DNA from: Rhodopseudomonas pseudopalustris
GTDB taxonomy: Bacteria; Pseudomonadota; Alphaproteobacteria; Rhizobiales; Xanthobacteraceae
Direction: 5' to 3'
NCBI RefSeq assembly: GCF_900110435.1
Contig: NZ_FODT01000010.1
Span: 62,001-126,000 of the forward strand
Length of the DNA stretch: 64,000 bases
In this document: positions 7,861 to 44,622 of the stretch, piece after piece
How the letters are laid out: each line of letters opens with the position of its first letter
How positions within the stretch are numbered: the stretch's first letter is position 1
Translations under genes and position numbers: made by a program
Notes under the pieces: generated by a model
The model's input: only the letters and a program-made list of their open reading frames with translations
The model's database searches: none
Told to the model about the DNA's origin: nothing

Positions 7861-10353
7861 ATGCGATTGCTGCTGCGGTTTTTCGGCTTTCTGTTCGCAG
7901 CCGGGACGATCGTGTTTCTGGTCGGCGTCGCCGGCGCGGCCGGGATGATCTGGCACTTCTCCAAGGACTTGCCCGACTACTCTCAGCTCCAGGATTATGA
8001 GCCGCCGGTGATGACACGCGTCCACGCGTCGGACGGATCGCTGCTCGGCGAATACTCCAAGGAGCGGCGGCTGTATCTGCCGATTCAGGCCGTGCCGAAG
8101 CCGGTGATCAACGCCTTCCTCGCCGCCGAAGACAAGAACTTCTACGAGCACGGCGGCATCGACTATTCGGGCATGGCGCGCGCCGCGATCCTGTACGCCC
8201 AGAACATCGGCTCCAACCGCCGTCCGCAGGGCGCTTCGACGATCACTCAGCAGGTCGCCAAGAACTTCCTGCTCACCAACGAGGTGTCCTTTACCCGTAA
8301 GATCAAGGAAGCCTTGCTGGCGATGCGGATCGAGCGCGCCTATTCGAAGGACCGCATCCTCGAACTGTATCTCAACGAGATCTATCTCGGTCTCGGTGCC
8401 TACGGAATCGCCGCCGCCTCGCTGGTGTATTTCGACAAGTCGGTGAACGAACTGACGGTGTCGGAGGCGGCCTATCTGGCCGCTCTGCCGAAGGCGCCCG
8501 CGGTGCTGCACCCGATCCGCAACCACGACCGCGCGGTCGAGCGTCGCAACTACGTGATCGACCGCTTGCTCGAGAACGGCTGGGTCAAGCAGGCCGACGC
8601 CGACAAGGCGCGCAAGGAGCCGCTGACCGTCACCAGCCGCAGCACCGGCGCGCACACCTTCGCCGGCGAATACTTCGCCGAGGAGGTTCGCCGCGACATC
8701 TTCGAACGCTACGGCGAGAAGAAGCTTTATGAAGGCGGGCTGTCGGTGCGCACCACGCTCGATCCCAAGCTGCAGGTCGAGGCGCGCAAGACCATGACCG
8801 CCGGCCTCGTCAAATTCGACGAGGCGCAGGGCTGGCGCGGGTCGGCGTCGAAGCTCGACATCAGCGGCGACTGGGGCGTGAAACTCGCCGACGTCAAATC
8901 ACTGTCCGACATCTCGCCCTGGCGGATGGCCGTGGTGCTGGACACCTCCGATCAGTCGGCGCGGATCGGCTTCCAGCCGGGCCGTGAACTCGGCGGCGCC
9001 GTATCGAAGCAGCGCGAGACCGGGCTGATCACGCTCGACGGCGTGAAATGGGCGAAACCGGCGGCCGGCCCGCAGCGCGGCCGGACCCCCGGATCGGTCT
9101 CGCAGGTGCTGGCGGCCGGCGACATCATCTATGCCGATCCGCTGCTCGACAAGGAAGGCAAGCCGGTCGAAGGACAATACCGGCTGCGCCAGATCCCCGA
9201 AGTCTCGGGCGCGATGGTGGCGATGGACCCGTGGACCGGCCGCGTGGTGGCGATGGTCGGCGGCTTCTCGTTCGACCAGAGCCAGTTCAATCGCGCCACC
9301 CAGGCTTATCGGCAGCCCGGCTCGTCGTTCAAGCCGCTGGTGTATTCGGCGGCGATGGACAATGGCTATACGCCGTCGACCGTGGTGGTGGACGCCCCGA
9401 TCGAGATCGATCAGGGCCAGGGCGCCGCCGTGTGGCGACCGGAGAACTATTCGACCGGCAAGTATTACGGCCCGCAGACCCTGCGCAACGCGCTGCAGAA
9501 GTCGCTCAACACCGTGACGGTTCGATTGGCCCAGGATGTCGGAATGCCGCTGATCGGCGAATACGCCAAGCGGTTCGGCGTCTATGACGAACTGCCGAAC
9601 TATCTATCCTATGCGCTCGGCGCCGGTGAGACCACGGTGATGCGGATGGTCACCGCCTATTCGATGTTCGCCAATGGCGGGCGGCGGGTGAAGGCGACGC
9701 TGATCGACCGTATCCAGGACCGCTACGGCCGCACCATCTTCAAGCACGACGCCCGCGAATGCCGCGGCTGCGACGCGCCGGAAGGGTGGAAGAACCAGGC
9801 CGAGCCACAGCTCATCGATCGCCGCGAACAGGTGCTCGATCCGATGACGGCCTACCAGATCACGTCGATGATGGAGGGCGTGGTGCAGGCTGGCACCGCG
9901 ACGGTCCTGCGTGAGGTCGGCAAGCCGATCGCAGGCAAGACCGGCACCACCAATGACGAGAAGGACGCCTGGTTCATCGGCTTCTCGCCGGATCTCGTGG
10001 TCGGCATCTATTTCGGCTACGACAAGCCGCGCAATCTCGGCCGCGGCGCCACCGGCGGCCATCTCGCGGCTCCAGTCGCCAAGGACTTCTTCAAGCTCGC
10101 GCTGGCCGACAAGCCGGCGGTGCCGTTCCGCGTGCCGGCCGGCATCAAGCTGATCCGCGTCGACGCCAAGAGCGGAATGCGCGCCGGCCCGGGCGACGGC
10201 GGCCGCACCATCCTCGAGGCGTTCAAGCCGGGCACCGCGCCGCCGGACAATTATTCGGTGATCGGCGTCGCCGACGCAGATGGCCGCCAGCAGCAGATGG
10301 CGCCGCCCGACGATCGCGGCTTCATGCGACCGGGGACAGGCGGCCTCTACTGA
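7861..10353 (+). CDS. mrcA: Penicillin-binding protein 1A
   Basis: An 830-residue bifunctional peptidoglycan synthase. One N-terminal membrane anchor (residues 5-31) is followed by the GT51 glycosyltransferase domain with catalytic glutamate E90 in AAEDKNFYEHGG and the QGASTITQQ motif. The transpeptidase domain has S488-x-x-K491 (QPGSSFKP), a KSLN motif, and K693-T-G. It polymerises lipid II and cross-links strands at the outer face of the inner membrane. Its length and the insert between the two catalytic domains fit class A PBP1A. The position directly after amiC and before prfB is an order I recall from Rhodopseudomonas and Bradyrhizobium. Confidence 0.96.
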   Translation: MRLLLRFFGFLFAAGTIVFLVGVAGAAGMIWHFSKDLPDYSQLQDYEPPVMTRVHASDGSLLGEYSKERRLYLPIQAVPKPVINAFLAAEDKNFYEHGGIDYSGMARAAILYAQNIGSNRRPQGASTITQQVAKNFLLTNEVSFTRKIKEALLAMRIERAYSKDRILELYLNEIYLGLGAYGIAAASLVYFDKSVNELTVSEAAYLAALPKAPAVLHPIRNHDRAVERRNYVIDRLLENGWVKQADADKARKEPLTVTSRSTGAHTFAGEYFAEEVRRDIFERYGEKKLYEGGLSVRTTLDPKLQVEARKTMTAGLVKFDEAQGWRGSASKLDISGDWGVKLADVKSLSDISPWRMAVVLDTSDQSARIGFQPGRELGGAVSKQRETGLITLDGVKWAKPAAGPQRGRTPGSVSQVLAAGDIIYADPLLDKEGKPVEGQYRLRQIPEVSGAMVAMDPWTGRVVAMVGGFSFDQSQFNRATQAYRQPGSSFKPLVYSAAMDNGYTPSTVVVDAPIEIDQGQGAAVWRPENYSTGKYYGPQTLRNALQKSLNTVTVRLAQDVGMPLIGEYAKRFGVYDELPNYLSYALGAGETTVMRMVTAYSMFANGGRRVKATLIDRIQDRYGRTIFKHDARECRGCDAPEGWKNQAEPQLIDRREQVLDPMTAYQITSMMEGVVQAGTATVLREVGKPIAGKTGTTNDEKDAWFIGFSPDLVVGIYFGYDKPRNLGRGATGGHLAAPVAKDFFKLALADKPAVPFRVPAGIKLIRVDAKSGMRAGPGDGGRTILEAFKPGTAPPDNYSVIGVADADGRQQQMAPPDDRGFMRPGTGGLY

Positions 10354-11604: not shown

Positions 11605-12243
11605 TTAGTTCAGCGGTTGGGCGTTTGGACCGCAACGCCATCGCTGCGCTGCAATTCGAAGGAGCGCATCCTTAAATCTAGCTGGAATGTGGTCGCCAGC
11701 CAGACGTCTGGTATCAACGTACAATGGAATGGATCGGGGGAAGGGTGACTTGGTTAGTCTCAGCTCACCTCCCTCAATTCGCGTCCCATCGATTTGATTC
11801 ATTAGAATTTTCTCATCGTCTGACCACCTGGGCGCATCGAAAGTTTCATCCATGGGTCTGACAATGGTTTTCAGCGCGGTCGATGAGCCTTTCTTTTCTC
11901 CAATTCCGGCGATCAGTAGTCCGCAGAATATGCCGTCGGCTTTTGATCCCGACGTGATGTCAATGCCGGATCGATTTGGCGAGGGCTTTCCCTTCCTGTG
12001 GACATACCACGTCCCACGTTCGAGCTGCTGCTCGGCCCAATATCGAACGCCGTGAGTAGTGCAGTCACGCCAAAGGGTGGGATGGTACAAATACAGCTCA
12101 ATCGCTTCGATCGGCCACTGCCTTGTGCCCCGCTCGATTTGATAGTCAAGAATGAGCGTTTGTGCCGCGCTGTAGAAACGATCGCGGATTTCGTCGAATG
12201 AATTCGAGTTTCTGAAATCAGGTAGGACGCTGTCAATATCCAT
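11605..12243 (-). CDS. Hypothetical protein, probably recently acquired
   Basis: A 212-residue protein whose function I do not recognise. Readable stretches include AIELYLYHPTLWRDCTTHG, RGTWYVHRKG, SGIDITSG and FCGLLIAGIG. The pattern of Trp-Tyr-x-His, then SG(V/I)DIT, then GGLLI resembles a family of small uncharacterised bacterial proteins that I cannot name with certainty. It has no signal peptide or membrane span. It lies between prfB and the M23 gene, convergent with prfB with only 15 bases between stops. The DNA is clearly richer in A and T than its neighbours, with codons such as AAT, TTT and ATT at raised frequency. That suggests horizontal insertion. Confidence 0.75.
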   Translation of the reverse strand: MDIDSVLPDFRNSNSFDEIRDRFYSAAQTLILDYQIERGTRQWPIEAIELYLYHPTLWRDCTTHGVRYWAEQQLERGTWYVHRKGKPSPNRSGIDITSGSKADGIFCGLLIAGIGEKKGSSTALKTIVRPMDETFDAPRWSDDEKILMNQIDGTRIEGGELRLTKSPFPRSIPLYVDTRRLAGDHIPARFKDALLRIAAQRWRCGPNAQPLN

Positions 12244-12315
12244 GCTTCTGCACTTGGTTGGTTGTCAACTAACCCACCATTTTCCAAAAGTGCCTCTCAG
12301 TCAATTCCATTGCTA

Positions 12316-37222: not shown

Positions 37223-37383
37223 ATCACCGTCTCCCGCCCCGTGCACGGACCCGCCGGGTTGTCAGCACCCCGGCCGGATCGCCGCCGACCCCTCGATGCA
37301 TATTTGATTGAACCATGCACAGGTTCTGGCCGACTATCGCCCAGGCGGTCGGATCCGGCCGCAGGGTGTCGAGGGACTGATTG

Positions 37384-38877
37384 ATGCGATCGAACTGGCT
37401 CCGGGCGCTGTCGGCGATCGGCGCCGGCGCCATTGTGCTGGCGCTTGCGGCGCCCGCCGCGGCGGCCAAGCGCGTCGCGCTGGTGATCGGCAACAACGAT
37501 TATCGCAACGTGCCGAAGCTGCAGAAGGCGGTGAACGACGCCCGCACCATGGGCGACGCGCTCCGCACGCTCGGTTTCCAGGTGATGGCCGCGGAGAACC
37601 AGAGCCGTATCGGCTTCAGCCAGAGCCTGCTGGCGTTCGACAACGCGATCGAGCCCGGCGACACCGCGTTCTTCTTCTATGCCGGGCATGGCTTCGAGAT
37701 TTCCGGCCAGAACTTCCTGCTGCCGACCGACGTGCCGGCGGCGACCGAAGGCCAGGAAGAACTGTTGCGCGACGCCTCGATCCTCGCCGACCGCATCGTC
37801 GAGCGGCTGCAGAACCGCGGCGCGCGCACCGCGATCCTGGTGCTCGACGCCTGCCGCAACAACCCGTTCGAGCGCCGCGGCACCCGCGCGCTCGCCGGCC
37901 GCGGTGGGCTCGCGCCGATGACGACGCTGCCCGAGGGCGTGTTCTCGATCTTCTCGGCGGGGCCGCGGCAGACTGCATTGGATCGGCTGTCGGACACCGA
38001 CGCCAATCCGAACTCGGTGTTCACGCGGGTGTTCGCCAAGCAGTTGCTCGATCCCGGCGACAATCTCGTGCAGGTGGCGCAGCGGACGCGGCGCACGGTG
38101 AGCGAAATGGCCGAGACTGTCGGTCACAAGCAGGTGCCGGTGTATTTCGACCAGATGGTCGACGACGTGTTTCTGAGCGGCGCGCCGAAGCCGGGCGCGG
38201 CCGCGCCGGCCGAGCCGCCGCAGAAGGTCGCGGCGCTGCCGCCGGTGGCGCCGTTGAAGCCGCCGACCTCGGAGAGCCTCAACGCGCCGATCGCCAGCTT
38301 CTCGCGCCACAATGGCGGCTGGACGGTGTCGTTCTCGATCGCCGATCCGACTCTCGGGATCTCCTGGCGGCTCGGCGACAGCGGAGAATTCCGCGAGACG
38401 GGTTTCATGGACGTGCTCGATCCGCGCACCCGCAAGCGGATGCCGAACCCTTCGATCCAGTTGCCGACAGACGCGGCGGCCGCGACCCTCGAGGTGCGCT
38501 ATGTCGATGCGCAGGGCGAGCTGCAGGGGCCGTTTCCGATCCGCTTCGAGCCGGAGGCCGCGCTGCTGCGCGACCAGCGCAAGATACTTGACATGACCGC
38601 GACGAGCTGGCTGTCGTTCCGCGAGTTCAATGGGCTATTGGTCTACTACACACATCTGATGTCTTATCGTTGCGCGATCCGCGAGGCGCGGATCGGGATC
38701 GACAGCGCGGTTCCCGACAAGGTGCTGAAAATGCCGGCCTGCGACCTACGCGATCCCGTCGCGATCCCGCACGAGGCGACGCCGTATCTGAAGCTGTCGC
38801 CGAACGTGAAATCGGTGTCGGTGGAATTGACCTATCGCGACGGCTCGGTGTCGGAGATCAAGAGTTTTCGGCGTTGA
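37384..38877 (+). CDS. Secreted caspase-like (C14) protein
   Basis: A 497-residue protein with a signal peptide (about 1-28, cleavage after APAAAA) and a caspase-fold domain (about 29-260). The strand KRVALVIGNNDY opens the fold, catalytic His102 is in YAGHGF and Cys157 in LDACRNNPF, so the dyad is intact. A Pro/Ala-rich linker (about 262-290) joins a C-terminal domain of ~200 residues with no family I can name. Such caspases cut after basic or acidic residues in other systems; the target here is unknown. ATG 37384 follows GAGGGA. The gene is followed after 112 bases by aqpZ, and a second caspase-fold gene lies beyond it on the other strand. Confidence 0.88.
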   Translation: MRSNWLRALSAIGAGAIVLALAAPAAAAKRVALVIGNNDYRNVPKLQKAVNDARTMGDALRTLGFQVMAAENQSRIGFSQSLLAFDNAIEPGDTAFFFYAGHGFEISGQNFLLPTDVPAATEGQEELLRDASILADRIVERLQNRGARTAILVLDACRNNPFERRGTRALAGRGGLAPMTTLPEGVFSIFSAGPRQTALDRLSDTDANPNSVFTRVFAKQLLDPGDNLVQVAQRTRRTVSEMAETVGHKQVPVYFDQMVDDVFLSGAPKPGAAAPAEPPQKVAALPPVAPLKPPTSESLNAPIASFSRHNGGWTVSFSIADPTLGISWRLGDSGEFRETGFMDVLDPRTRKRMPNPSIQLPTDAAAATLEVRYVDAQGELQGPFPIRFEPEAALLRDQRKILDMTATSWLSFREFNGLLVYYTHLMSYRCAIREARIGIDSAVPDKVLKMPACDLRDPVAIPHEATPYLKLSPNVKSVSVELTYRDGSVSEIKSFRR

Positions 38878-39925: not shown

Positions 39926-41803
39926 CTATCTTGCCTTGAAATAGAAACCCTGAGCCGACAACTGCCCGTAGGTGAACGGCTCTTGCTTCTTCGCGGTGCT
40001 GGCGTAGACGTCGTCATGCACCATCCGGAATAGCTGGTTGATCTCGAGACCCGGCGCGTCCATGAGCCGGACCAGCGACGTCGCGAACGGGCTGTTGTCG
40101 CCGGAGCCGTCGGTCGCGTAGTGGCCGTGCTTGGTGGCAAACGCCACCAGCGTGCCGCTTTCGGGTTCGATACGCGCGAGGCCTCTGCCGACCGAGAGTG
40201 ATTTCTTCTCTGCGGCGAAGGGATTCTCGCGGCAGGCGTCCAGGATCACGAGACGCATCTTGTCGGCGGCGCCGACTGCGTTGAGGACCTGATCGAGGGC
40301 AACGCCTTCGTTCGGAATATTGGCATCGTTCTCGAATTTCGCGTCGACCGGAACGAGATAATTGCTGCCGTCGAGTTCAATGCCGTGACCGGCAAAATAA
40401 ACAACCGACCAGTTGGCGTTTTTACTCTCGTCGGTGAAGGTTTTAAGTGCAGCCAAAAGCGAGTCCCGGTTCACGTCTGTCAGCAGCTTGACGTTCTGGA
40501 AACCGGATCTTCCGAGCGCGTCGGCAATGGCAGCAGCATCCCGTTTGGGATTTGCAAGCGTGTCGAATGCCTCATATTTCGAATTGCCGATCACCAGAGC
40601 GATACGCCCACCGGTTCGCTCCGTGCCCGGACGGGTGGCGCCCATTTTGGCGTCGATCCGCTCGATGCCCGCGGCTGCGACGGGGTGCGAAGGAACCAGT
40701 TTCAACGCGTCCTGAAGGTCGGCTTGCGCCTTCGCGAAATCGCGCGACCGTTCGAACGCCTGCGCGCGCTGGAGCAGAGCGGTTATGTTCTTCGGCTCGA
40801 TCTTGAGTGCCTCGTCGAAATCCTTGATTGCCGCCGACAGATTATTGGTCGCGATATAGGCGCGGCCGCGGTTGATGTAGGGGCGGGCAAATCTGGAGTT
40901 GATCGCGATGGCCTGCGAAATATCGGTGATCGCGCGGTCATACTCGCCGAGACTAAACTGGACATAGCCTCTGCCGCTGAGATAAGCAGCGGTGTTTGGC
41001 GCCAGCTCGAGCGCCCTGTTGTAAGCCGCCAGCGATTTTTCAAACTCCTGCAGCTTGCTGTAAACTGATCCTAATCCTCCATGAGCGGGGGGCAGGTTCG
41101 GATTCAGCTTTACGGCTCGGGTCAGGTCGGCCAATGCCTTGTCTTGGTCGCCCATGTCCGAATAGATCATTCCCCTGAAGGCGTAGGGGGCGGCTGCGGT
41201 ATTGTCGATCTCGAGGGCCGCATTGACATCCGCCAATCCCTTGCCGTTGTCACGCAACGCAAAGAACGCGTTCCCGCGTTGACCCAGCGCGAACGCATTG
41301 CGCGGATCCAGCTTCAACGCCTCGTTGAAGTCAGACATGGCTTCGTCGAATTTTCCAATCCGCATTTTGGCGACACCGCGCCAAGCGTAGGCAAAGGGAA
41401 ATTTCGGATCCTGCTTCACGGCCCGATCGAGTTCGACGATCGCTCCGGCATATTTGCCCTGTTCGATCAGCGATCGCGCTTTGCCGACCGCCGGCCCCGC
41501 GACCGAACGCGGCTGGTTCAAGCCACCGGGGCCCTGCCTGCCTGCGCCGCCGGGGCCACCGCCCATGGCGGCCTGGACGCAGGCCCTGACCTTCGGCGTT
41601 GCCAGCGCACGGCAGGACTCCAGCGTTCCGCCTGCCTTCATGCAAGGCATGACGATCGGCCTGCCTACGGTTTCGCGACAGCGTTCCAGCGCCTGGCCTT
41701 GCGAGAAGGCCGGATTGGCAAGCAGCAGGACCGAGGCGATTGCTGCGAGAGTTGAAATCGAACGCGAAAGAACTTTGCTATAGCAATTGCTGCGCGCCCA
41801 CAT
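39926..41803 (-). CDS. Secreted TPR-caspase (C14) protein
   Basis: A 625-residue protein. The signal peptide ends near residue 34 (VLLLANPAFSQ). The mature N-terminus has four cysteines (42, 54, 64, 75). About seven TPR units fill residues 108-385 (for example FDEAMSDFNEALKLDP and FEKSLAAYNRALELAP). The caspase-fold domain starts at GGRIALVIGNSKY (~398), with His473 in YFAGHGIEL and Cys524 in LDACRENPF, so the dyad is intact. ATG 41803 is used because GGGAG lies five bases before it; ATG 41815 has no ribosome site. TPRs would bind protein partners. It is divergent from the three-gene zinc-ribbon cluster at 41970-43438. Confidence 0.9.
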   Translation of the reverse strand: MWARSNCYSKVLSRSISTLAAIASVLLLANPAFSQGQALERCRETVGRPIVMPCMKAGGTLESCRALATPKVRACVQAAMGGGPGGAGRQGPGGLNQPRSVAGPAVGKARSLIEQGKYAGAIVELDRAVKQDPKFPFAYAWRGVAKMRIGKFDEAMSDFNEALKLDPRNAFALGQRGNAFFALRDNGKGLADVNAALEIDNTAAAPYAFRGMIYSDMGDQDKALADLTRAVKLNPNLPPAHGGLGSVYSKLQEFEKSLAAYNRALELAPNTAAYLSGRGYVQFSLGEYDRAITDISQAIAINSRFARPYINRGRAYIATNNLSAAIKDFDEALKIEPKNITALLQRAQAFERSRDFAKAQADLQDALKLVPSHPVAAAGIERIDAKMGATRPGTERTGGRIALVIGNSKYEAFDTLANPKRDAAAIADALGRSGFQNVKLLTDVNRDSLLAALKTFTDESKNANWSVVYFAGHGIELDGSNYLVPVDAKFENDANIPNEGVALDQVLNAVGAADKMRLVILDACRENPFAAEKKSLSVGRGLARIEPESGTLVAFATKHGHYATDGSGDNSPFATSLVRLMDAPGLEINQLFRMVHDDVYASTAKKQEPFTYGQLSAQGFYFKAR

Positions 41804-41969
41804 AAAATCTCCCATTAAATAAACTTGCCAAGTAACTTTATAAATGTACCAGCGAGCCGAGAGATCTCAACTATGATCGCCCGATTTTAAGGTTTGTCAA
41901 TACCGCGACATCGCCTTGGTCAGCGTGATAAATAGCAATTCTTGCCACATTTAAAATGAGGGCATGGGA

Positions 41970-42434
41970 ATGCACGGTCGGACGCTTCGCTTGTTGTTTG
42001 CCGCTTCGATTGCCGGTTGCCTGCTCGTTAGTTCGGTAGACCCCGGCTTCGCCGCCAACGTCATTATCACCGAGGAGGAGGGGAAACTCCCGCCTCCGAG
42101 GGAAATGCCGGCGCCTTCCGACCGCGGTATTACCCGCGGTCCAAAGATCGAGCTCGACGCCGACGACAAGGTCGTCCTGCGCGCGCCGCTGCATTTGAAG
42201 CTGAAATTCAAAACCTACGGCGGCTCAGCGATCGATCTCGGCGCCCTTCAGGCGACTTACATCAAGGAGCCGGCCGTCGATCTGACGACGCGGCTGAAGC
42301 CGTTCGCCCAGCAAACAGGCATCGATATTCCCGATGCGCAATTGCCGCCCGGCGAGCATTTCATTCAGATCCTTATCAAGGATTCGGACGGCAGGGCCGT
42401 CACCAAGGTTTTCAAGCTCAAGGTTGCTCCCTGA
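41970..42434 (+). CDS. Exported hypothetical protein (possible lipoprotein)
   Basis: A 154-residue exported protein of unknown function. Either a lipobox-like SIAGC near residue 15 or a signal peptidase I site after VDPGFA (~28) could be used. The mature part starts with an acidic/proline stretch (TEEEGKLPPPREMPAP) and continues as a beta-rich domain (KVVLRAPLHLKLKFKTYGGS, PGEHFIQILIKDSDGRAV) resembling a small Ig-like or carrier-binding fold; this is an impression only. ATG 41970 fits GAGGG at 41959; ATG 41964 is too close to it. It begins the cluster divergent from the TPR-caspase. Confidence 0.75.
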   Translation: MHGRTLRLLFAASIAGCLLVSSVDPGFAANVIITEEEGKLPPPREMPAPSDRGITRGPKIELDADDKVVLRAPLHLKLKFKTYGGSAIDLGALQATYIKEPAVDLTTRLKPFAQQTGIDIPDAQLPPGEHFIQILIKDSDGRAVTKVFKLKVAP

Positions 42435-42467
42435 CATTTCGGTCGGATCTGCATCGAGGTTCAGAAT

Positions 42468-42671
42468 TTGAAGTGTTATTTCTGCGCGTTCGAAACCGAA
42501 ACGGGGGTGCTGGTCTGCAGCGCCTGCTCGCGTGATATCGTCGCGCCGGCGTCGGTGATCGCGGAACGCGATGACCTCGTGCGGAAACTCGCCAGCGCGC
42601 GCGAAGAGCTGTTGAGGACAAAGGAAGAGATCAAAGCTCTGACGCGGCGCGGCGAGGGTGGCGAAGGCTGA
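42468..42671 (+). CDS. Small zinc-ribbon coiled-coil protein
   Basis: A 67-residue soluble protein starting with TTG 42468 (ATCGAGG upstream; no ATG or GTG is available in frame). It has a C3-x2-C6-x10-C17-x2-C20 zinc ribbon (CYFCAF ... CSACSRDI) followed by a helical segment (ERDDLVRKLASAREELLRTK) likely to form a coiled coil. The last base of its TGA is the first base of the next gene's ATG, so the two are translationally coupled. The zinc ribbon matches the next protein in spacing and in the CSRD motif. Function is unknown. Confidence 0.7.
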   Translation: MKCYFCAFETETGVLVCSACSRDIVAPASVIAERDDLVRKLASAREELLRTKEEIKALTRRGEGGEG

Positions 42672-43438
42672 TGGAGTGCCCGTTCTGCGTCGAAACAATC
42701 AAGGACGAGGCTCTCGCCTGCATGCATTGCTCGCGCGACCTTCGGGTCATTCGCCCGGTGCTGCTCGAGATTCAGGAGACAGTGCTCGAACTCGACAAGG
42801 TCAGGCAGGAGCTCGACCGGGAGCGGGCGCGGCTTGAACGCCTCAAGCATCCGTGGCGCACCTTTCTATCCTACGCAGTTCTCTACGTTGCGATCCCGGT
42901 CGTGCTGCTCGTCATCGCGCACGTCCTGATCACCATCGCATTCAATATCTCGCCGCTCTATCTGCGCATCGCTTCGGTCCTGATTCCGTTTCCCTTCGGC
43001 TTCCTCGCTTTCGTGGTCAGCCGGCTCGGTTTGCGCGGCGCCTTCGCGATAGGGCTTTCGACGGCGACCATCGCGGTCGCGCTGATGCTCGTCATCACCG
43101 GCGTCAACGATGCTGTGCCGATCATCCCGACGACGCGCGGGGAGTGGCGGGAGGTCACGGAATACATCGCCAGCGTTTGTCTGGCGTTCGTCACCGGCAA
43201 CATCCTGAGCGCACTGATCTTCAAGATATTGCCGGGTACGCTGGCGGGTGGCGGGCGACCGAACCCGGCCGCGTTCAAGGTTGCGCTTCTGCTCGGCCGG
43301 CATGTCGGCGAGGATCAACTCCGCCGGCGGGCGCGGCTGATCCAGAACATGATGCAGACGGCGGGGCCTCTGGCCGGTGTTGCCGCAACGGCAGTCGGAT
43401 CGATCTATGCAGGATTGAAAGGCGTCGTCGGACAATGA
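42671..43438 (+). CDS. Zinc-ribbon membrane protein with coiled coil
   Basis: A 255-residue protein. An N-terminal zinc ribbon with cysteines 3, 6, 17 and 20 (CPFCVE ... CMHCSRDL) is followed by a coiled coil (about 31-58). Four predicted membrane spans follow at about 66-90, 97-117, 122-143 and 164-186, and a ~65-residue cytoplasmic-looking tail (RPNPAAFKVALLLGRH...). I do not recognise a named family. Zinc ribbons joined to membrane helices are seen in bacterial sensor or conflict proteins; that link is inference. It overlaps the preceding gene by one base. Confidence 0.78.
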   Translation: MECPFCVETIKDEALACMHCSRDLRVIRPVLLEIQETVLELDKVRQELDRERARLERLKHPWRTFLSYAVLYVAIPVVLLVIAHVLITIAFNISPLYLRIASVLIPFPFGFLAFVVSRLGLRGAFAIGLSTATIAVALMLVITGVNDAVPIIPTTRGEWREVTEYIASVCLAFVTGNILSALIFKILPGTLAGGGRPNPAAFKVALLLGRHVGEDQLRRRARLIQNMMQTAGPLAGVAATAVGSIYAGLKGVVGQ

Positions 43439-43509
43439 CGGCCGCCAAGCGCTCTCAATATCGTGTCCCTGATAGCGCCAAGCGCTGTCCGCTCTGCCAT
43501 CCTGTTATA

Positions 43510-43611
43510 GCGTTTTCGAGCGAAGTGGGTACCGGTTCGCGTGGAGAAAACGCGCCAGAACAAACAGCTAGAGCTCCGGTTCTGATTCGATCAGAACCGG
43601 AAAAGCTCTAG
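43510..43611. repeat. Two-hairpin intergenic repeat
   Basis: Hairpin 1: GCGTTTTC (43510-43517) with GAAAACGC (43546-43553). Hairpin 2: CTAGAGCT (43568-43575) with AGCTCTAG (43604-43611), enclosing CCGGTTCTGAT / ATCAGAACCGG. I recall this composite element as one of the most abundant dispersed repeats in Bradyrhizobium and Rhodopseudomonas genomes. A related half occurs at 61661-61691. It marks the end of the zinc-ribbon transcription unit. Confidence 0.85.
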
Positions 43612-43713
43612 CCTGGTGCTCTCGCGGAGCGGCTATCTCTCACCATGTCCGCTGGAGTGTCGTTTTCGGTTCCGTCCCGCATATTCTATCAGTGAGCCCG
43701 GGAGGTAGCTGTG

Positions 43714-44622
43714 ATGAAATGGCGACTAATCATGATGGCGTTGACGATGTACGGCCTGACAGGCGCTCTGAATGCCGAGCAGCAGCCGGTGCATCGTGAT
43801 AGACTGCCCTCCGAGATCGTCCGCCGGGCTGCAACCTATGCGACCGATCTGACATTTCCCAATCATCCGGAAACGTCCGCCGACGTCGATCCGCCGCGTA
43901 TGGCGTTGCTGAAGCCTGCCGGGGATGGACCGTTCCCCGCCATTGTGCTGGTCCATCAGTGTAGCGGGCTCAACCCAGCGGTGTTGGCGTGGGTACGGCG
44001 CGCGATCAGCCGGGACTACGCGGTGCTGCTGCTCGACAGCCTTACCGCACGCGGCGTCACGAGCCTCTGTCATGGCCCGAAAGCCGGCGTCAATCTGATC
44101 CGGGGCACCAGGGACGTGCTGCAGGCGGCGCAGTTCTTGCGGAAGCAGTCATTCGTGGATGGCGAGCGCGTTGCCCTCGTCGGCTTCTCCTGGGGCGGCA
44201 TGATCGGACTGCTGGCGTCGAGCCGGCATTATGTCGGCGCATTGGAATCCGGGCCCGGATTTGCAGCTGTCGTCAGCTTCTATCCAGGGTGTTTTCGAAT
44301 CACGCCGCCCAACGGACAACCGTTCGAATTGGTGAATTCCGATATCGCCCAGCCGCTGCTGGTGTTGATGGGAGAGGCAGATACCGAAACACCGGCCGCC
44401 GACTGCGTCAGGAATCTCGATCCGATCAAGGCGGCGGGTGCGCCGGTCGAGTGGCACAGCTACCCGTATGCGACGCATTGCTGGGATTGCCAGCACCTCG
44501 ACGGCTTCCGCAAGATCGATGTCCGCGGCAACGAGGTCGCTTTCACGTACCAGCAAACTGTGGTCGACGATTCCGAGCGGCGGCTGTTCGAATTTCTCGA
44601 CCGCCGACTGACGCGTCCTTGA
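43714..44622 (+). CDS. Secreted dienelactone-hydrolase-family protein
   Basis: A 302-residue alpha/beta hydrolase with an N-terminal signal peptide (about 1-22, MALTMYGLTGALNA). Nucleophile Ser159 is in GFSWGG, the acid probably in GEADTETP, and the histidine in YPYATHCWD. Four or more cysteines in the chain (QCSG, SLCHG, YPGCF, ADCVR, HCWDCQ) suggest disulfides in the periplasm. Dienelactone hydrolases open lactone rings, but the exported members are mostly uncharacterised. ATG 43714 fits GGAGG at 43701; GTG 43711 is an alternative. Confidence 0.85.
   Translation: MKWRLIMMALTMYGLTGALNAEQQPVHRDRLPSEIVRRAATYATDLTFPNHPETSADVDPPRMALLKPAGDGPFPAIVLVHQCSGLNPAVLAWVRRAISRDYAVLLLDSLTARGVTSLCHGPKAGVNLIRGTRDVLQAAQFLRKQSFVDGERVALVGFSWGGMIGLLASSRHYVGALESGPGFAAVVSFYPGCFRITPPNGQPFELVNSDIAQPLLVLMGEADTETPAADCVRNLDPIKAAGAPVEWHSYPYATHCWDCQHLDGFRKIDVRGNEVAFTYQQTVVDDSERRLFEFLDRRLTRP

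What the first reader, a model, noticed from the sequence alone, without database searches (positions are those of the whole stretch)
39926..43438. TPR-caspase divergent from an exported protein and a paired zinc-ribbon module
A secreted TPR-caspase with an intact His/Cys dyad is divergent from three closely packed genes: an exported small protein, a 67-residue zinc-ribbon protein and a zinc-ribbon protein with four membrane spans. The last two overlap by one base. Intact catalytic residues, protein-binding repeats, a membrane partner and shared ribbon suggest a dedicated stress or defence module. Gene neighbourhood is the only evidence for a joint function.
Basis: partly seen in the sequence, partly recalled or inferred. 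Interest (0 to 1): 0.75.

Follow-up and report, generated by a model that had tools for sequence, protein, structure and literature searches.

The report
Exported caspase-like protease with membrane partner
Bacteria related to Bradyrhizobium carry an unstudied gene set in which an exported caspase-like protease sits with a small exported protein and a membrane protein bearing a zinc-ribbon head; relatives swap one type of caspase-like protease for another while keeping the partners, which suggests a real but still unexplained stress-sensing or defence machine.

Summary
In detail: the four genes lie where stated, with an intact C14 His/Cys dyad. A dedicated module is supported, but its usual protease is an exported TPR-CHAT enzyme, another caspase-fold family. 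Of 78 named loci chosen by the zinc-ribbon membrane protein, 72 have CHAT within 5 kb, 5 have C14, 1 neither. The window and two Bradyrhizobium genomes share a divergent TPR-C14 form whose four-cysteine N-terminal domain also occurs on the module's CHAT proteins, and on 0 of 31 other C14 ORFs among the caspase's best relatives. The set recurs in another proteobacterial lineage: 8 of 8 exported-protein genes found there lie within 2.5 kb of C14 or CHAT, against roughly 0.3-0.7% by chance. The membrane protein's head can be TIR instead. In 28 of 126 loci the module, or a cut or remnant copy, lies at clpP-clpX. Against: 11 of 40 own-family loci show no protease within 5 kb (some cut or remnant), and N-domain genes also occur outside modules. 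Function is untested; I favour membrane-spanning, protease-triggered signalling in envelope stress or defence.

The parts
39926..41815 (-). TPR-caspase with export-type N-terminus (N-domain, TPR repeats, Peptidase_C14)
41531..41710 (-). four-cysteine N-terminal domain (residues 36-95) shared with the module's TPR-CHAT proteases
   Evidence: alignment A7; C11, C23, C33, C44 of the stretch invariant in 24 rows, most of which were picked with a four-Cys pattern
40676..41482 (-). TPR repeat region, residues about 112-380
   Evidence: DNA coordinates by arithmetic
39965..40606 (-). Peptidase_C14 domain, residues 404-617; His477 codon 40385-40387, Cys528 codon 40232-40234
   Evidence: DNA coordinates by arithmetic
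41816..41963 (.). intergenic stretch between the divergent genes; two sigma-70-like matches on the - strand, none on +
   Evidence: 2 found in 41700-43720; shuffles 0.5, sd 0.7
41964..42434 (+). small exported-type protein with predicted beta-sandwich mature domain
42468..42671 (+). 67-aa zinc-ribbon protein
42671..43438 (+). 255-aa protein: zinc ribbon, helical segment, four hydrophobic peaks

Best explanation
This is an envelope-spanning protease module. From sequence: a protease of the caspase fold with an export-type N-terminus (here N-domain-TPR-C14, elsewhere N-domain-TPR-CHAT), a small exported-type protein with a predicted beta-sandwich, and a four-span membrane protein whose N-terminal head is a zinc ribbon (elsewhere a TIR domain). 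Inferred: protease and small protein form a complex outside the inner membrane, held together by the N-domain and TPR repeats. When they meet a trigger (misfolded or foreign envelope material), the protease acts on, or changes the state of, the membrane protein, most likely through its conserved loop between spans 3 and 4. The signal passes to the cytoplasmic head, which with the 67-aa ribbon protein recruits a cytoplasmic effector. Its place between clpP and clpX in part of the genomes makes cytoplasmic proteolysis a possible output. The C14 enzyme in the window does the job that TPR-CHAT does in most relatives.
For: Linkage: 29 of 40 own-family loci and 77 of 78 named loci have CHAT or C14 within 5 kb of the membrane-protein gene; the two sets share several genomes; 8 of 8 exported-protein genes in family f189 within 2.5 kb; 2 of 2 plasmid records found with the exported protein. 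Rough chance per locus 0.2-2% at 2.5 kb, 0.3-4% at 5 kb (from counts, CHAT cross-hits on C14 genes removed by hand; shared ancestry ignored). Protease swap: WIN, L125, L126 one clade (100/99) within a set of 22 rows whose other 19 are CHAT (98/91) (root by midpoint only); the window genome's one CHAT match falls on a C14 gene; shared N-domain. Active sites: 98 of 98 CHAT hits have FA[TS]H and LSACN; 15 of 15 C14 genes have GHG and DACR (a 16th row is an antisense ORF). Hydrophobic N-terminus in 89 of 97 CHAT ORFs, at least three of the rest being truncated. TIR_2 heads. clpP/clpX context.
Against: No functional data. Eleven of 40 own-family loci have no protease within 5 kb: L086, L093, L096, L097, L123 with flanks to judge by; L098, L099, L102 on contigs under 6 kb; L091 (cut; its other half L092 has CHAT), L121 (remnant copy), L124 (weak match, no gene). 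L182, the one miss in the named set, looks like the same locus as L086. Eight of 32 N-domain places lie outside modules, among them two CHAT genes (L212, L213) and the broken C14 of L216. Six of eight class-level loci outside the family have neither intact C14 nor CHAT within 5 kb. The exported protein is rare: 10 of 385 class, 9 of 299 phylum and 6 of 80 f189 genomes. The membrane-protein model is poor (pLDDT 63.5), so topology rests on hydropathy and charge. The clpP-clpX site is found in a minority of loci and not in the window. The window's second caspase (37381) has no counterpart in the L125/L126 stretches.
Confidence: 0.4

Rival explanations
1. Defence or abortive-infection module: the exported protease-sensor detects phage at the envelope and the cytoplasmic head (TIR or ribbon) kills or arrests the cell.
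For: TIR_2 heads on a related membrane domain (L099 E=8e-12, L102 E=4e-10); L100, 73% identical to L099, sits with CHAT; patchy distribution (37 of 198 family genomes); exchange of parts; a relative with CHAT on a conjugative plasmid. Published caspase-containing defence systems exist (PMC12799240, passages).
Against: PADLOC gives only generic caspase and TPR models plus a weak LmuB match, E=0.047. Some loci sit in a housekeeping clpP-clpX neighbourhood. No match of the small protein in the phage collection at E 1e-5. TIR catalysis not tested.
Confidence: 0.27
2. Housekeeping proteolysis outside the inner membrane: the membrane protein and ribbon protein are assembly or anchoring factors for the protease, with no signalling.
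For: Position by tig/clpP/clpX/lon in 28 of 126 loci; in genus g25 10 of 10 and in g26 8 of 11 sampled genomes match the membrane protein; TPR repeats.
Against: Found in only 2 of 11 sampled genomes of the window's own genus; head exchange for TIR is odd for an anchor.
Confidence: 0.22
3. Cell-death module in which the membrane protein is a pore released by the protease, as with bacterial gasdermins.
For: Protease next to a membrane protein; the glycine-rich C-terminal segment also occurs as detached copies in G123.
Against: No gasdermin match; predicted helical protein, not a beta pore.
Confidence: 0.08
4. Chance neighbourhood of unrelated genes.
For: Several loci lack the protease.
Against: Recurrence in two lineages and in different gene orders and the shared N-domain.
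Confidence: 0.03

Closest known systems
Prokaryotic C14 caspase homologues (metacaspases / orthocaspases)
   Same: Peptidase_C14 with His/Cys dyad; TPR fusions and N-terminal hydrophobic segments are described (PMC3501461, passages)
   Different: Linked exported protein, ribbon pair and N-domain; the 31 other C14 ORFs examined in the family lack the N-domain
TPR-CHAT protease Csx29 / Craspase, type III-E CRISPR (listing with starts of abstracts)
   Same: TPR plus CHAT architecture in the usual partner of this module
   Different: Here the protease has an export-type N-terminus and sits with a membrane protein; the PADLOC scan of five window proteins showed no cas family; no wider cas search was made
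Canu caspase-nuclease defence (PMC12799240, passages)
   Same: Caspase, TPR and Ig-like parts in one locus
   Different: In the prototype CanABC the caspase carries the Ig-like fold itself and partners a nuclease; here the beta-sandwich is a separate exported-type protein and no nuclease family was matched
Caspase-linked Thoeris (title in a reference list and one sentence; mechanism otherwise recalled)
   Same: TIR and caspase-like protein in one system
   Different: Here the TIR, when present, is the head of a membrane protein; the window has none
Bacterial gasdermins with caspase-like proteases (listing)
   Same: Protease beside a membrane-acting protein
   Different: No gasdermin match

Membership tests
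Peptidase C14 caspase family | C14 domain above Pfam cut-off | tested here: met
   117 bits against cut-off 21.4
Peptidase C14 caspase family | His/Cys dyad | tested here: met
   GHG 476, DACR 526
Peptidase C14 caspase family | cleavage after basic residues (as stated for orthocaspases in the PMC6426788 abstract) | not testable with these tools
   needs enzyme assay
Craspase (type III-E CRISPR) | TPR-CHAT protease | tested here: not met
   window protein's main hit is C14 (117 bits); it also reaches the CHAT cut-off weakly, 29.6 against 24 bits, over the same region; relatives do have TPR-CHAT
Craspase (type III-E CRISPR) | gRAMP/Cas7-11 and CRISPR array | not tested
   no dedicated search made
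Canu | caspase with C-terminal Ig-like fold | tested here: not met
   C14 match ends at residue 617 of 629
Canu | linked pro-nuclease | tested here: inconclusive
   no nuclease among Pfam and NCBIfam hits of the module proteins, but three of them match no curated family above cut-off
Bacterial gasdermin systems | gasdermin-fold partner | tested here: not met
   no gasdermin hit; predicted helical, four hydrophobic peaks
Caspase-linked Thoeris | TIR protein in the locus | tested here: not met
   no TIR among the eight window proteins scanned; TIR heads only in relatives
Known defence systems in PADLOC | system-specific model match | tested here: not met
   generic caspase and TPR models and a weak LmuB match, E=0.047, for five window proteins

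The most novel reading that the evidence does not exclude
A two-compartment, caspase-type receptor system: an exported protease-sensor with exchangeable catalytic domain (CHAT or C14) signals across the inner membrane through a four-span protein with exchangeable cytoplasmic head (zinc ribbon or TIR), and at its clpP-clpX site feeds the ClpXP/Lon machinery. No paper describing this set was seen in the ten paper searches, which cover open-licence papers only.
Probability: 0.3. Interest if true: 0.87.

Novelty: new variant of a known kind. Interest (0 to 1): 0.72.

Why it matters
What exported bacterial caspase-like proteases do is, to my knowledge, largely open. This module gives them fixed partners, a shared N-terminal domain and a defined membrane protein, so their trigger and substrate can be sought genetically. 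The exchange of CHAT for C14 under the same N-domain, and of ribbon for TIR on a related membrane domain, would show how immune-type parts are recombined in bacteria. If the clpP-clpX link is functional it would join envelope sensing to cytoplasmic proteolysis.

Tried and rejected
Collection scan with the exported-protein alignment A1 was not possible. Structure of the membrane protein: poor model, best PDB match E=0.38. Exported protein: model pLDDT 79.7, only weak matches, best E=1.4e-3, to Ig, FN3, PKD and CopC-like sandwiches; profile against PDB sequences best E=0.017, so 'Ig-like' is a description, not an assignment. PHROGs: for the membrane protein only matches to its first 25-30 residues. 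Papers on TPR/CHAT in Bradyrhizobium and on CHAT with clpX: none listed. The B. diazoefficiens caspase-family gene bll3611 of the NnrR regulon was not tied to this module. Early regex counts of the CHAT Cys motif missed rows and were replaced; a first N-domain pattern was wrong and was replaced. An earlier idea that one search shows C14 in every family genome was dropped: that search also counts TPR matches, and a Pfam C14 search of 18 genomes found it in 17.
Full report
What is in the window. The 629-aa protein has TPR repeats and an over-cut-off Peptidase_C14 domain with GHG and DACR motifs. The three rightward proteins match no Pfam or NCBIfam family above cut-off. The last is a zinc ribbon, a helical stretch and four hydrophobic peaks. 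A second C14 caspase, 37381-38877, and an aquaporin gene lie just beyond the first.

Who else has it. In 198 sampled genomes of the family, the membrane protein matches in 38 and the exported protein in 37; the window's genus has it in 2 of 11 in both searches. Some match to the TPR-caspase occurs in all 198, but TPR repeats alone can give that; Pfam C14 was found in 17 of 18 genomes searched with it. I fetched 36 stretches round membrane-protein matches from 34 genomes and mapped them; three genomes with weak or partial matches were not fetched. The exported-protein gene lies beside it in 35 of 36; the exception, L091, is one half of a gene that appears cut between two contigs (L092 holds the other half and the exported protein).

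The protease is usually CHAT, not C14. The gene upstream of the exported protein in most loci is a TPR protein with a CHAT domain (L083: PF12770, E=1.6e-48; the others by similarity to it) and an export-type N-terminus in 89 of 97 ORFs. Counts within 5 kb of the membrane protein: own-family loci, 26 CHAT and 3 C14 of 40 (the 36 plus four exported-protein loci, one of which, L124, proved a weak match without a gene); named loci from the species collection, 72 CHAT and 5 C14 of 78, neither in L182. The named loci are the best 78 of 154 relatives that the scan confirmed, mostly Bradyrhizobium and Afipia, so they are close kin, and several seem to be genomes already in the first set. The own-family loci without a protease are listed under evidence against.

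The window's form. L125 and L126 (two Bradyrhizobium genomes) have the same divergent TPR-C14 gene next to the same three genes. In the tree of the membrane protein these three are one clade (100/99) within a set of 22 rows of which the other 19 have CHAT (98/91); with the root only at the midpoint, replacement of CHAT by C14 is the likeliest reading, not proven. The window genome's only CHAT match falls on one of its six C14 genes. The N-terminal part of the window caspase, with four cysteines, matches the N-terminus of the module's CHAT proteins (41-69% identity in A7 outside L125; 51% over 77 residues to L083) and was found in 0 of 31 other C14 ORFs, some of them cut short. A profile of this domain matches 32 places in 30 of 198 genomes: by position 24 are in module loci and 8 are not. 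The 8 are two CHAT genes without the exported protein nearby (L212, L213; the second genome, G014, has its exported protein on another contig, L093), three short or broken genes in one genus (L214-L216; in L216 the domain is followed by a C14 stretch with stops), two places in one small double-domain protein (L217), and one weak partial match (G055, not fetched).

Other C14 forms. L088 and L184 have two C14 genes upstream, L090/L188 and L202 have C14 directly after the membrane protein, and L122 has C14 beside the exported protein alone. GHG and DACR are present in 15 of 15 C14 genes; the CHAT motifs FA[TS]H and LSACN in 98 of 98 hits (the two sets overlap).

Beyond the family. In 385 genomes of the class 10 match the exported protein, two of them from the window's family. 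Of the eight loci outside it, L113 has CHAT and L114 has C14 within 5 kb, both with the membrane protein. The other six are weaker matches without it: three (L115, L117, L120) have a degenerate C14-like gene about 2 kb away (L117 just over the Pfam cut-off; the other two judged by eye), two (L118, L119) lie 1.5-3 kb from a trypsin-type protease gene, with TPR in L119, and L116 showed neither in the ORFs listed. In 299 genomes of the phylum 9 match, one of them (G781) from outside the class. In 80 genomes of G781's family 6 match, at 8 places. All 8 lie within 2.5 kb of a C14 or CHAT domain, and 3 of the 7 loci also have the ribbon membrane protein (L218, L225, L226). L225 has CHAT, exported protein and membrane protein in the order seen in Bradyrhizobium. 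Both plasmid records found with the exported protein carry an annotated CHAT gene divergent from it; one of them, Variovorax paradoxus, also has the ribbon protein. A random point lies within 2.5 kb of such a protease with roughly 0.2-2% chance in the 19 genomes counted; this ignores shared ancestry and is not a formal test.

Exchangeable head. In L099 and L102 a related membrane domain carries a TIR_2 head; L100 is 73% identical to L099 and sits with CHAT; in L098 the spans appear inside a split TIR-like sequence (by eye). All four are beside an exported-protein gene.

Position. In 28 of 126 loci tig, clpP, clpX or lon lie beside the module; it lies between clpP and clpX on the same strand, or is a contig-cut half (L091, L092) or remnant (L121) of that arrangement. 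Divergent members L095 and L096 are among them, so this may be the older site. Some of the 28 seem to be the same genome in both sets.

Mechanism. Export of protease and small protein, four spans and a ribbon head are sequence inferences. By charge I place the ribbon inside and the loop between spans 3 and 4 outside; D147, P153, W159, E161, E164 and Y165 there are invariant in 34 rows. That gives a two-compartment arrangement in which an exported protease could signal inward. Trigger, substrate and output are unknown, and stress and defence both remain open.

Known systems. C14 membership is met by domain and dyad. Canu, gasdermin and Thoeris fail on a feature tested; Craspase fails for the window protein on its main domain and was otherwise not tested (see the table). 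Literature: passages of PMC8195603, PMC7159879, PMC3501461, PMC12799240 and PMC6710368 were read by term search; the other papers were seen as listings only.

Noticed in passing
window 37381-38877 (+): A second C14 caspase with hydrophobic N-terminus and GHG/DACR (PADLOC generic caspase E=8.7e-15), separated from the module by an aquaporin gene; no second C14 was seen in the L125/L126 stretches.
   Followed up: partly
window 43711-44622 (+): Dienelactone-hydrolase-like protein; homologues lie near the module in a minority of loci (for example L068, L083, L143, L175).
   Followed up: partly
L098:1790-2683: The membrane spans appear to be inserted inside a TIR-like domain (by eye).
   Followed up: partly
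L080 (G123) 9228-9347, 12162-12263: Detached copies of the last 35-40 residues of the membrane protein downstream of the module.
   Followed up: no
L185:4833-5354, L192:6645-7169, L217:7775-8242: Small proteins made of tandem four-cysteine N-domains; in L185 and L192 the gene lies between the CHAT gene and the exported-protein gene.
   Followed up: partly
L218:8077-13977: Outside the class: two exported-protein genes, ribbon membrane protein, C14-DUF4384, an OmpA-like protein (by eye) and a divergent second C14.
   Followed up: partly
L115:10571-12067, L117:5589-7082, L120:10609-12126: Degenerate C14-like genes that by eye seem to lack the His and Cys, about 2 kb from distant homologues of the exported protein; only L117 was tested with Pfam.
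   Followed up: partly
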